Source: Sipunculus nudus
Taxonomy: Eukaryota > Annelida > Sipuncula > Golfingiida > Sipunculidae
DNA: 64,000 nucleotides
Direction: 5' to 3'
NCBI GenBank assembly: GCA_026874595.1
Contig: CM049313.1
Location: 54,586,659 to 54,650,658 of the forward strand
Below, in pieces: positions 50,801 to 56,800 of the stretch (its first letter is position 1; the number at the start of each line of letters is the position of its first letter). The position numbers and the translations under genes were made by a program. The notes under the pieces were generated by a model, which searched no databases, was not told where the DNA came from, and saw only the letters and a list, made by a program, of their open reading frames with translations.

Positions 50801-53800
50801 CAATGCTCATGTCAATGTGAACTGGTGCAGAGAGAATCATATCTATCATCCATGTACACTAAGATCCATTTTAAATATATCCAAAATTCAGTTCAATATA
50901 TCTGAAAACATCTATAAAATGTTGTCCATAGTTAATAAATGATACATATAATATAATTCACAGGACCAAAAACTCAGGAAATGCCTTAAATTTTGGACGG
51001 AAAATGGTCATTATAAAAACATCACAAACTTTGGTAAGCAACTGAGTGAAAACTAAGCTAAAATTTTGTGTTGGAGGAAAGTTAATAGAAACTAAAAAAT
51101 AAATTGAATAAAGATATCAGGAATAAGGCTACTTTTCAAACTTTTCCCAGACTTGTATACCACCTCAAACAAAATTGGGAAAAGACCCAGTCAATTTAGA
51201 ATTACTATATAAGGAAAACAAATGCAACCAATAAATACATAACATCTTACGAGTAGCTGGAAGGTGAAGAATTAAAAGATAAATAGTAGAAATGACTAGA
51301 TTTATAAAGGTCTGCAGTACAGCCTCATTACTCAGGAAAGGAACATTTTGCATGATGAAAAATTGGTGGCCATACCTAATTTCCAACAGCCCCCCGCCAC
51401 CCCCCCCCCCCCCAGTAGAAAAATATACAGCAATAATTAACACTAATTTTTTTTGTTTGGTTCTTGAGTGGCAGCTTAACTGTTGGAGAGAAAACCTGAT
51501 AATACCTCAGGGTTTCCAATATTAATTAAATATTGACACTTTCATTAAAATTTATTTTCATATTTTACAAGCTTGACACTGACCATGGCATCATAAACCC
51601 CCAAAATCAGGCACTAATCAAAAGACGCTTTGCTTATTTACTTCACTAGGCAGAGAGCATTGTGCTCTGTGCAGTCAGATTTTAAACAGGTAACTTACCT
51701 CAGCCCAAGTCTCCCAAGCTTCCTGGCTGGCTCTGATGACATTCTCATAGTCCTCAACACTGCCCTGTATGGTAAATTAAAAACTCCTGACTACACAGTT
51801 TAAACCTAATTCTTCTACCTCTAAGCTCTTTGTACTGATTTTTATTTCACAGATTTCATCGATTATAACTTTCTGTCTACTAATAAAAACTAAATAAGAG
51901 TAAAATTAAAACCGGACTGACCTGTCTTTATTAAAATGTAACAATTAACTCACTGTTTTTATAAAGGAAACATATTTCATCATGATATGTTTGATAATAT
52001 AGATCCATAAAACAACGGCAGGGTTGGCAAGTTTAGGCAGGAAGGTTTTAACCATAGGTTATAACCAGGTTAAAACTGCCCCGCCTAAAACAGGTTTAAG
52101 GCAGGTTTTAGGCACCAAAAGTGCCTGAAACCTATATTTGTATAAATTTTGACTTAAAGATCTATGAAACTGCTAAACTGGCTTGGGTGATACAGTCACA
52201 AGGCTTTGCTTGGCTTCTGGAAGGTTTCAGGTATCAGTAATGTATGATCTCTTCTTGGCTGGAATCATGTAGTCTTCAAAGAGCCTTATAGGTTTGTTTG
52301 AATGATTTATTGACACAATACATAGTAAGTACATTCATGTGGTATTCTATCTAAGCACATATATAAATATAAACATGTATCAATAGATTGAGCGCAAGCT
52401 ACTTAAAGCTTATGAAGCTCACTCCTGAATTCTAAAGTGGTAATTTTCTGATGCATGGCAGGGGGGGGGGGGGTGATGTTAACATATTGATGACTGAAGT
52501 ATCATGGAAGATGTGGATAGCATAATGACTGTTTTTAGTTGTGATTTGGAAAGTGTAAGGTGCCAGTTGAGAGGAGAGAGAGTTTTGGTGGGTGTGGGAT
52601 GAGTTTGTCAAAATCGTCAAATTATTTTATGTTAGAATCTGTTGGAGTTTTCAATAAAGTTTGCTACCGATTCGAATATTTCCTTGTTTGATTTGTCATC
52701 TATTTTTGGGTCACCAAAAAGTAGAACTTTTAATGGGGTATCCCTAGGTAAGTATGTTTTCCTAGTGGAGTTATAGAGGTGGCATTGCAGTAGGTAGTAG
52801 TTGGGATCTTCTGATGGGTGGCAACATTGACATTTTTTGGTGTTGCTTAAATGTCTTTTGTGGTAGTCGACCAGATGGCCGAAACCCAGAATGCCGAAAC
52901 CCATAATACCGAACCCAAAATGCCGAAGCCCATCTTGCCGAAAAAGAAAATAAATAATAGCAAATAATGTGATTATTGACAGTAAAGTGATAAGTCCGTT
53001 GTCTGTTAAGGTATTTTAACAAAATTTGATACCATCCTCTAATATTTTCAAATAATTAACGGTAATTTATTTGGCATGTCGGCAGCGGCACTACTATAAT
53101 ATCGGCATGACAACCCGGTCCCGCTAAGTGTCCCTGGCTATATTAGACCCTCGTTTTGCAGGTATAGTCAGACTAACTGATTTTCATGAAGAAAGTTATA
53201 TCTTGGGTCACATTTATGCTTCTTTGTGAACTATTTTTTTTTTAATTTACACATTGTTCAACTGCATATTAGCCAAGATGGCTGCGGTCGCCTGGGGAAC
53301 TCACGGCAGGTTTAATATTTAATCTTCCAAATCAATGGGGAAGGTCTAAAACCCTAGGGGGTTTCCTTGCTATTTCCACGAGGGATTACGGGTCCAGTGT
53401 CGTCCGGCGGGTTTCCTTGCCGATTTCCGAGTGACGCTACGCTCCCGTGAGTTCCCCACGCGACCGCCTCCATCTTAGCTAATATGCAGTTGAACGATGT
53501 GTAAATTAAAAAAAAATAGTTCCTAAAGAAATATAAATGTGACACAAGATATAACTTTCTTCATGAAAATCAGTTAGTCTGAATATACCTGCAAAATGAG
53601 GGCTTAATAAAGCCAGGGACATTTAGCGGGACCGGGTTGTCATGCCGACATTATCGTAGTGCCGCTGCCGACATGCCAAATAAATTACCCTTAATTATTT
53701 GAAAATATTAAGAGGATGGTATCAAATTTTGTTCATGTACCTTAACAGACAACGTATATATAACTTTACTGCTCATTAAACACATTATTTTCCTATAATT

Positions 53801-56800
53801 TATTTTCTTTTTCGGCAAGATGGGCTTCGGCATTTTGGGTATGTGAAAATTTGTTTCGGCATTCTGGGTTTCGGCCATCTGGTCTACATTCGTCTTTTGT
53901 ACATATGATAATTTAGATCACTACATTTCATTCTCATGCGTGCATGGATTATTTGTGATTATCTGGTTCCTGAGTTGTAGTACATAGGTGTTTTAGTTCT
54001 TAGAGCTGATTTTTTCAATTGGTAGTTTAATGAGGCACTTGTCCAGCAAGCTTTCTTATCAAGATCCATTTGGTTCCATAATCTGATTGATTTTGGGAGA
54101 AAAGAGTCTTATAGGTTTCTTGAGCATGGAACCATGTTTGTGTGCCATATAGTTTCATTGACCAAGGTAATGTCATTACGTAACATGACCCTTTGGGTTT
54201 GCTGATGAGAGCCCTGCTACCTGGAATGATGTAATAGCGTCTATAGTATGCCTCTTGTAAGGCCATGCTTGATTAGACCAGTTTATTACTACATGTATTT
54301 ATCAGGGTAATGGGGTCATAAGACCCAATGGTCATAAGTCCCATTGCTGTGTCCCAGTAGATGTTCATGTGATGCAAACAAAGCTCTTGCCCTGAAAACT
54401 GTTCTTGAGTCAAACTGGGTTATGCAGTCAGGGCCCCTGACCATGACATGTAGGTTTCTCAGGCCTTTTATTTTAGGTTGAACAAAAGTGGTTATGAATA
54501 TTGTGATTTGCAACATATTCACTGCAATATATTTTCGCATTTTTCAGTTTTTCACTAATTATAGTGTTTCATGAGGGTTCCATTTTCACATCTCACAGTT
54601 AACAGAGCATATCCATCATTATATAGACAAATAGTAAGCACACAAAATCTTAAAATTTGATAAAGGATGACCTTCCTATTGGAAAAAACAACCAGTGGCT
54701 ATTCTTGTTCATTATCAGATTATGCAATAGATATTATCAAATTTTTAGTTTATGGCTAGCATAAAAGATCTGTTATAATTAAGAAAATCAATCTTTTGCT
54801 TTTTGCCACTTGAAGCTACAAAATTTTAGGAATAAAAAATATTCATGATATGTTAGTGAGACTACAGTATAAAGGACTATTCATCAGTGTAAATGGAACA
54901 ACTTTTTAAATTCGGGAAAAATTTTTTTGCATATATAAAAAATGTAATCCCTTGTGATCAAAAAGCCAATCAAAGTATCTGGTAATAAACGTACAGTATG
55001 AGCATTCTTTTATAAATTGGCAATAATGGAAGTGGGGGACCTCAAAACTTGATTTGGGGATACAAGCTAAAATTGTCAGAGAACGGTGTTCATATGGAAA
55101 ACCTGAAGTAGTGTTGTATTCATTTTTTTCTTTTTTTTTGTATCATGGTTTAATTATTTAGTTTGAATATAGTGTTCCTCACTTTTAATTTGTTGAGAAT
55201 ATTTCTTTAATGCAATTAGCTATGTAACAATATTAAAACATAGTTAAACTGCAAGTCATAGTTGAGGGTATGTAAGGTTTTAGGCAGTTAAAGGCAGTTT
55301 TAGGCAGGTTATAACCTATTTTAGGCAGTTAAAGGCAGGTTTTAGGCTCTGCCCTGCCTAAAACAGGTTTTGGGCAGCCTAAAACCCAACCCTGAACAAC
55401 GGGTTTTCAGCAAAAGAACGGCTGGTACTGAATTCAATAGAGTATTTCTATCGGAGTAATTGTATACTAGGTGTACAGGAATAAGAATCTGAACTTTTTC
55501 TTGCTTTAAGTACAAGTTAGTGATGGGCTGATGTTCCATTATAATACATGATTAGTTAGTTGATGCAAACCAATTTGATCACCACTCTTGCAGTGCAATA
55601 ATCCATTATAAAATTTTACACATGACTTTATAATGAGGAAATGTTTTCTCTCATTACAGTCACTATAAAACTCTGTGTTTACTAACAATATCATAACTAA
55701 GGAACCTTACAACACACATAGGACATAGAATTATCAATATATTACTGATTATGTATGCCTTTTTATCAGTTGGGATGATGTGTAGCCCTGCATACGGGAA
55801 GAAGTTCCATACTCCTACACCACTGATTAATTCTGATTATCAGTTGATAGAGGTCAACCAATTTTTACTAATGATTGATCATGAAACTACAAAGGATTCC
55901 CAACACTAGCACATTTATCACAATTTATATCTAGAATACGGGTAGTCTACATGTAACTATGTGCATCTGCCTAAATCAGGGTAGAATGTGTGAACTGAAG
56001 CATGGATTGAGTGGCAAGGGGAAACAGAGTAATATGTGTTGCATATTAGCATATATGTCTACCACAAAAACATGATTGTAGGTAGCATCACCTGTCATTT
56101 GAAAGAGAAACTATCCAAGATGTACACATATGCATAATTTCAGGTGGATAATTTAAACCACCCCCGAGATACAAGTGTTTTATCCCACAGCACACAAACA
56201 GATTGACTCTGTGCAAAAATGGTTGCAGGTGGCACCACCAGTTTTGTGAATGATAAAGAGCTATACGAGATCTAAACACATGCAAATTTCAGGAAGATAC
56301 GTCAACCAGTCAGGAGATAATAGCATGGATGTCTGCAGCATGAACTTAATGAAGGTGGCCCAACCTGTCATAAAATCAAGAGAGCTATCCAGGATGTATA
56401 GGCATGCAAAATTTCAGGTGAACAAGTCCAACCACAGCAGAGATACGAGTGATTTTAACTCAAGACAGACAAACAGATGGACACTGTGCAAAAATGGTTG
56501 CAGGTGGTGCAACTGTTTTTTGTGTATGTTATAAAGCTATTCAAGTGCTACATTCTTGCAAATTTCAGCCTGATTGGTTAAATGAGTCCGAAGATATATG
56601 GGTTAATATGTCAAAACAAATGCTCAGATGGACATAATTGGGAGAGGAAAGGTCACACAAAATATTTTAGCACAAGTTCACATGTGACCTGATAGTGATG
56701 TAAAGTTTCAGAAGTATCGACCAGTGGTCTCACAGTTCTATGCCAAATCAAATACGGTGGCGGCAGAACCTGGTCAACAATTTGGTATGTGCAAAAGGTT

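What the first reader, a model, noticed from the sequence alone, without database searches (positions are those of the whole stretch)
52011..55402. Three-level nest: fold-back element inside a retrotransposon remnant inside a hAT-like element
Seen directly: CAGGGTTGG inverted ends with a perfect AACAACGG duplication (outer); a minus-strand non-LTR retrotransposon C-terminal coding segment (middle); and a 1030-bp near-palindrome bounded by a perfect GTCTTTTGT duplication (inner). Deleting the inner element with one 9-bp copy makes the middle reading frame continuous, so the order of events is readable: retrotransposon sequence, then fold-back. Whether the retrotransposon piece jumped into the hAT element or was captured before mobilisation is open.
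Basis: partly seen in the sequence, partly recalled or inferred. Interest (0 to 1): 0.75.

Follow-up and report, generated by a model that had tools for sequence, protein, structure and literature searches.

The report
Three transposons nested in an intron
Three kinds of mobile DNA sit one inside the other in an intron of an animal gene, and sister copies elsewhere in the same genome show the order in which they arrived; the kind of nest is ordinary, but the record of its assembly is unusually complete.

Summary
Paralogous copies in the host genome (1.43 Gb, unnamed animal) give an empty site for each of the two inserted layers. Outer: a non-autonomous hAT-like element with 460 matching left ends genome-wide; eight copies read at both ends have eight different duplications. 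Middle: a 766-bp 5'-truncated non-LTR retrotransposon that jumped into the hAT element. Inner: the 1030-bp near-palindrome is an internally deleted Mutator/Foldback element of Phantom type; a 7.3-kb relative with the same ends and a perfect 9-bp duplication encodes FLYWCH and MULE domains. It is absent from the other two composites. One correction: the retrotransposon frame is in phase across the fold-back, but has one in-frame stop beside it. All parts are known kinds. The most interesting detail: the fold-back's two ends carry different 7-bp termini, as in nematode Tm1.

The parts
52011..52018 (.). outer 8-bp target duplication AACAACGG, left copy
52019..52277 (+). left part of the non-autonomous hAT-like element (inverted end CAGGGTTGG)
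   Evidence: 98.5% and 98.8% identical to the C2 and C3 composites; homologous sequence in copies without the insert
52278..52295 (.). retrotransposon target duplication AAAGAGCCTTATAGGTTT, left copy (hAT sequence)
   Evidence: single in the six empty copies L021-L026: closest form AAAGAGCCTGTATAGGTTT in L021 and L023, diverged in L022, L024, L025, L026
52296..52852 (-). non-LTR retrotransposon: 3' end with (AAAC)-type tail, 3' UTR and about the last 74 codons
52853..52861 (.). inner 9-bp target duplication GTCTTTTGT, left copy
   Evidence: site single (GTCTTGTGT) in L019, L020 and in another retrotransposon copy, L027
52862..53891 (.). internally deleted Foldback/Mutator element, 1030 bp: left arm with heptamer GGTAGTC and ~15-bp tandem repeats (52878-52943), right arm with heptamer GAATGTA; junction of the arms near 53309
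53892..53900 (.). inner 9-bp target duplication GTCTTTTGT, right copy
53901..54100 (-). retrotransposon, 5' part of the truncated copy (about residues 711-782 of the family frame; TAA at 53959-53961)
54101..54118 (.). retrotransposon target duplication AAAGAGTCTTATAGGTTT, right copy
54119..55394 (+). right part of the hAT-like element with subterminal TTTTAGGCAG repeats, ending CCAACCCTG
55395..55402 (.). outer 8-bp target duplication AACAACGG, right copy

Best explanation
A non-autonomous hAT-like element (about 1.5-1.6 kb, no long reading frame of its own) received a 5'-truncated non-LTR retrotransposon by target-primed reverse transcription at an 18-bp target. The occupied element kept both hAT ends and was mobilised by a transposase supplied from elsewhere, giving composites on contigs C3, C2 and C8. 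After that a Phantom-type Mutator/Foldback element, already short or collapsing on or after arrival, inserted into the retrotransposon part of the C8 copy with a 9-bp duplication. The whole nest lies in an intron of an ALDH7A1-like gene. Shown here: borders, duplications, empty sites, order, three separate composite positions, and coding relatives of the inner and middle layers. Inferred: which transposase moved the hAT element, that its moves were cut-and-paste, that the retrotransposon used target-primed reverse transcription, and that the short fold-back arose by something like abortive gap repair.
For: Outer: 8 of 9 copies could be read at both ends; they have 8 different duplications, 7 of 8 perfect at 8 bp and one (L026) at 7 of 8. 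Middle: present in 3 of 9 hAT copies; the target occurs once in the six empty copies. The 5' junction pattern matches 3 places in the genome (0, 0 and 1 mismatch); the 3' pattern matches 17, of which the same 3 are exact and 14 have 2-3 mismatches. Flanks of the three composites (1.5 kb each, 284 bp for one) show no collinear homology. The three composites form one clade (support 0.978), C3 splitting first and C2 sister of the window copy (0.879); a stop codon shared by window and C2 but not C3 fits this. Inner: absent in both sister composites, site single there. Of 16 family members read at both ends, 9 have 9-of-9 duplications, 4 have 8 bp or 8 of 9, and 3 have none convincing. Relative L041 (7292 bp, 9-of-9 duplication) has FLYWCH (E 1.6e-7) and MULE (E 1.5e-10) domains. 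The three loci with transposase matches of 85% or more (C10, C6, C5) each lie between facing family ends in the listing.
Against: No hAT transposase with these ends was found: 7 loci examined of 150 listed for the hAT dimerisation domain, and two longer hAT forms, L049 and L050, have longest frames of only 142 and 83 aa. Both GTCTTTTGT copies differ at one base from the sister copies (GTCTTGTGT), which needs a substitution before insertion. DNA searches scored only 40 candidates each and pattern listings stop at 100 places, so a further composite cannot be excluded. L029, L037 and L043 of the fold-back family lack a convincing duplication.
Confidence: 0.95

Rival explanations
1. The three composites arose by segmental duplication of one locus, not by transposition of the occupied hAT element.
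For: They are 98-99% identical in the hAT parts.
Against: Each has its own perfect 8-bp duplication (AACAACGG, TCTGAAAG, GGCCTGTA), and the flanks show no collinear homology; the only flank match is a set of short pieces (18-73 bp, 79-100%) between non-corresponding flanks in opposite orientation.
Confidence: 0.02
2. The retrotransposon piece was captured by the hAT element through gap repair or recombination, not inserted by target-primed reverse transcription.
For: DNA transposons can take up foreign DNA (recalled).
Against: 18-bp duplication on both sides (17 of 18 alike), boundary at the family's 3' end, (AAAC)n tail in 4 of the 17 places, 5' truncation.
Confidence: 0.03
3. The inner near-palindrome formed in place by an inverted duplication of local sequence.
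For: In its 1030-bp form it is unique among the 40 candidates scored of 163: only the window locus spans its centre.
Against: Both arms belong to a dispersed family with 134 matching ends. In L029-L037 each arm matches the same arm of the window at 92-98% and the opposite arm at about 88-92%. A 9-bp duplication and an empty site exist.
Confidence: 0.01
4. The fold-back inserted full length (2.2-2.65 kb or more) and lost its interior in place, rather than arriving short.
For: No second copy with the same centre among the candidates scored; two other short copies (676 bp in L040, 614 bp in L047) have different junctions, so collapses have happened repeatedly.
Against: A lost, unassembled or unscored short donor cannot be excluded.
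Confidence: 0.5

Closest known systems
Tm1, Mutator/Foldback family of root-knot nematodes (PMC3169594; abstract, the results section on TIR motifs and part 1 of 2 of the discussion read)
   Same: Different 7-bp motifs outside the inverted repeat at the two ends in most members, ~14-bp tandem repeats next to them, 9-bp duplications, FLYWCH plus MULE transposase in the coding member, many short deletion derivatives.
   Different: Different host and sequences; arms here are about 530-585 bp, and the 2.2-2.65-kb members read keep a centre without a long frame (up to 131 aa in the four listed).
Phantom group of Mutator elements (PMC6446971; passages read)
   Same: 8-10-bp duplications, TIRs of 18-613 bp, FLYWCH in some members (its table).
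   Different: Placement in the Phantom clade was not tested by a tree here.
Non-autonomous hAT elements such as Ds of maize with retrotransposons inserted (PMC3260210; passages read)
   Same: 8-bp duplications, short non-autonomous elements, nested insertions reported.
   Different: Ends differ; here the occupied element is seen at three separate loci. Whether loaded Ds elements moved again was not looked up beyond the passages.
Non-LTR retrotransposons with AP-type endonuclease
   Same: RVT_1 in L051; Exo_endo_phos plus RVT_1 in L060, 57% identical over the 200-aa query; 5' truncation; simple 3' tail.
   Different: Clade not assigned; no full-length copy of the same family was read.

Membership tests
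hAT superfamily (outer) | 8-bp target duplication | tested here: met
   8 of 9 copies readable at both ends: 7 perfect, 1 at 7 of 8
hAT superfamily (outer) | short terminal inverted ends of CAGGG type (type recalled) | tested here: met
   CAGGGTTGG/CCAACCCTG; 460 left-end and 420 right-end matches genome-wide, reversed controls 0
hAT superfamily (outer) | a transposase with hAT domains between the same ends | tested here: inconclusive
   none of 7 hAT-coding loci examined of 150 listed has these ends; two long forms have no frame over 142 aa
Phantom-type Mutator/Foldback (inner) | 8-10-bp duplication | tested here: met
   9 of 9 in 9 of 16 elements; 8 bp or 8 of 9 in 4 of 16; none convincing in 3 of 16
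Phantom-type Mutator/Foldback (inner) | long inverted arms with tandem repeats near the ends | tested here: met
Phantom-type Mutator/Foldback (inner) | FLYWCH and MULE domains in a member with the same ends | tested here: met
   L041, in separate frames at 2028-2354 and 4417-5538; MULE also in L042
Phantom-type Mutator/Foldback (inner) | different terminal heptamers at the two ends (Tm1 feature) | tested here: met
   15 of 16 two-ended elements have one of each (L043 with one mismatch); the exception, L037, has an aberrant heptamer and no convincing duplication
Phantom-type Mutator/Foldback (inner) | transposase groups with Phantom in a tree | not tested
   no library of eukaryote transposases at hand
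non-LTR retrotransposon (middle) | reverse transcriptase, with AP-type endonuclease in full copies | tested here: met
   RVT_1 in L051, same family; endonuclease and RVT_1 in the relative L060
non-LTR retrotransposon (middle) | duplication of variable length, 5' truncation, simple 3' tail | tested here: met
   18 bp; 766 bp kept; (AAAC)n tail in 4 of 17 places

The most novel reading that the evidence does not exclude
Foldback Mutator elements need one end of each kind: the two different 7-bp termini outside the palindromic arms are a polarity signal, and the transposase pairs one of each. Here 15 of 16 two-ended elements have one heptamer of each kind. In L042 the arms and interior are flipped relative to the heptamers, yet the element still has one of each and an 8-of-9 duplication. 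Tm1 of nematodes shows the same layout in most members (24 of 39 and 20 of 22 in two species, PMC3169594). Shared descent could explain the count, so L042 is the only partly independent support.
Probability: 0.3. Interest if true: 0.5.

Novelty: new member of a known kind. Interest (0 to 1): 0.32.

Why it matters
Nested transposons are common, but here both inserted layers have an empty form in the same genome, and the middle event was followed by further moves of the outer element, so the order rests on comparison and not on borders alone. It shows that a non-autonomous hAT-like element with a 766-bp foreign load still moved at least twice. The fold-back family shows the Tm1 layout, with unlike heptamers outside a palindrome, in another animal genome, which makes the end-polarity idea testable.

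Tried and rejected
Rfam on the whole window at gathering thresholds: 0 matches. Pfam on six small frames of the nest: only matches below the curated cut-offs, and none for a seventh frame, so classification came from relatives. Autonomous hAT partner: L049 and L050 (4.9 and 3.2 kb between ends) have longest frames of 142 and 83 aa; 7 loci with long hAT frames have other ends; not found. An apparent 1083-bp shared flank of the C2 and C3 copies was hAT body, because those loci are not reoriented; the true flanks share nothing collinear. Segmental duplication, capture and in-place palindrome formation were considered and rejected (see rivals). The host species was not identified. Literature: four searches on nested, hAT, MULE and foldback elements, one on Phantom/Foldback termini and one with a guessed host name; the closest item was Tm1. 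No claim is made that a re-mobilised composite of this kind is absent from print. Papers: PMC3169594 abstract, one results section and part 1 of 2 of the discussion; PMC6446971, PMC2213677, PMC3260210 and PMC3310237 passages only; the other papers as search listings only.

Full report
What was checked. The window lies at G000:C8:54586659-54650658 of a 1.43-Gb genome of an unnamed animal. In 200 second-order Markov simulations, an 8-bp direct repeat with a 9-bp inverted end within 6 kb occurs 22 times (0.11 per window); the window holds 4, including this one.

Outer layer. Searches with the two ends gave 460 left-end and 420 right-end matches genome-wide (up to 3 and 2 mismatches), and none for the reversed control patterns (only the first 100 places of each are listed). 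Many of the facing pairs that I read off those listings by eye are about 1.5-1.6 kb apart. Nine copies were read (window, L019-L026). Eight could be read at both ends: each has a different duplication, seven perfect at 8 bp and L026 at 7 of 8. The ninth, L023, has no readable right end. No hAT transposase with these ends was found, so the superfamily rests on ends and duplication length.

Middle layer. The window, L019 (C2) and L020 (C3) carry the retrotransposon; L021-L026 do not. In the empty copies the target occurs once, as AAAGAGCCTGTATAGGTTT in L021 and L023 and in diverged forms in the other four; in the window, L019 and L020 it flanks the insert on both sides. The insert ends where other genomic copies of this retrotransposon end: apart from the three composites, the matches start at query 265-279. 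Four of the 17 places continue in (TTTG)n, i.e. an (AAAC)n tail. Without the fold-back and one 9-bp copy the insert is 766 bp. The family frame in L051 is 855 aa with RVT_1 (E 4.8e-32); a relative, L060, 57% identical over the 200-aa query and with a 1112-aa frame, has endonuclease and RVT_1 domains. The window pieces match L051 residues 711-782 and 782-855 at 93% and 92%. The window and C2 copies share an in-frame TAA; the C3 copy does not.

Order of the composites. The 5' junction pattern matches three places (0, 0 and 1 mismatch), and the 3' junction is exact at the same three loci (3 of 17 matches; the other 14 have 2-3 mismatches). The three loci have flanks without collinear homology over 1.5 kb (284 bp for the right flank of the C3 copy) and three different duplications. 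A tree of the hAT parts of nine copies, several of them incomplete, puts the composites in one clade (0.978), C3 first, then window with C2 (0.879). So the retrotransposon landed once, and the loaded element then moved at least twice.

Inner layer. The fold-back is absent from both sister composites, where the site reads GTCTTGTGT once; the window has GTCTTTTGT twice, so the substitution probably preceded the insertion. The family has 134 ends at up to 3 mismatches, control 0. Long members of 2.2-2.65 kb have arms of about 530-585 bp around a centre without a long frame (up to 131 aa in the four members listed). L041 (7292 bp, perfect 9-bp duplication) encodes FLYWCH and MULE domains; L042 encodes MULE. 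The arms of L041 and L042 are 88-90% like those of the window, so they are cousins, not the direct parent. The transposase matches of 85% or more lie at C10, C6 and C5, each between facing family ends. Of 16 elements read at both ends, 9 have 9-of-9 duplications; L030, L040, L042 and L044 have 8 bp or 8 of 9; L029, L037 and L043 have none convincing. The window copy lacks the centre; L040 and L047 are short with different junctions, so collapse of these elements has happened several times.

Asymmetric ends. One arm ends in GGTAGTC and the other in GAATGTA: 33 of 36 ends follow the usual pairing of heptamer and arm, the two ends of L042 are swapped, and L037 has one aberrant heptamer. Tm1 of root-knot nematodes has the same plan: 7-bp motifs A1 and A2 outside the repeat, ~14-bp repeats, 9-bp duplications and a FLYWCH-MULE transposase (PMC3169594).

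Setting. Exons matching ALDH7A1 (antiquitin) lie on the minus strand at 57382-57441 (E 1.3e-5, residues 36-54 of the best chain), 51675-51776 (E 0.0025, residues 55-78 of the best chain) and 49895-50014 (E 2e-18). The nest is therefore in the intron between the first two.

Verdict. The finding is correct and its open question is answered. It is a well-documented example of known kinds, not a new kind.

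Noticed in passing
window 43600-57441, minus strand: Exons of an ALDH7A1 (antiquitin)-like gene; the nest sits in the intron between the exons at 57382-57441 and 51675-51776 (three exons tested; others seen only as motif matches).
   Followed up: partly
window 58064-59237: A second element with CAGGGTTGG/CCAACCCTG ends and a perfect 8-bp duplication AGTCAAAT, without detectable similarity to the nest's hAT parts.
   Followed up: partly
window 11813-13903: Another hAT-like candidate: CAGACATGG inverted ends with a perfect 8-bp duplication ACAAGTAC.
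   Followed up: no
L042 (C6:50154290-50161150): Terminal heptamers swapped relative to the arms and the transposase when compared with L041, as if the interior had inverted between the arms.
   Followed up: partly
L020 (C3 copy) and L023 (C6 copy): Both hAT copies are interrupted by another sequence beginning AACAAGGGACCTAT; in L020 the insert is 1908 bp.
   Followed up: no
window 5121-5957: Array of 33.5 copies of a 25-bp unit, lying in a 346-aa open frame.
   Followed up: no
window 48064-49359 and 15127-17119: Tandem arrays with units of 278 bp and about 150-340 bp.
   Followed up: no
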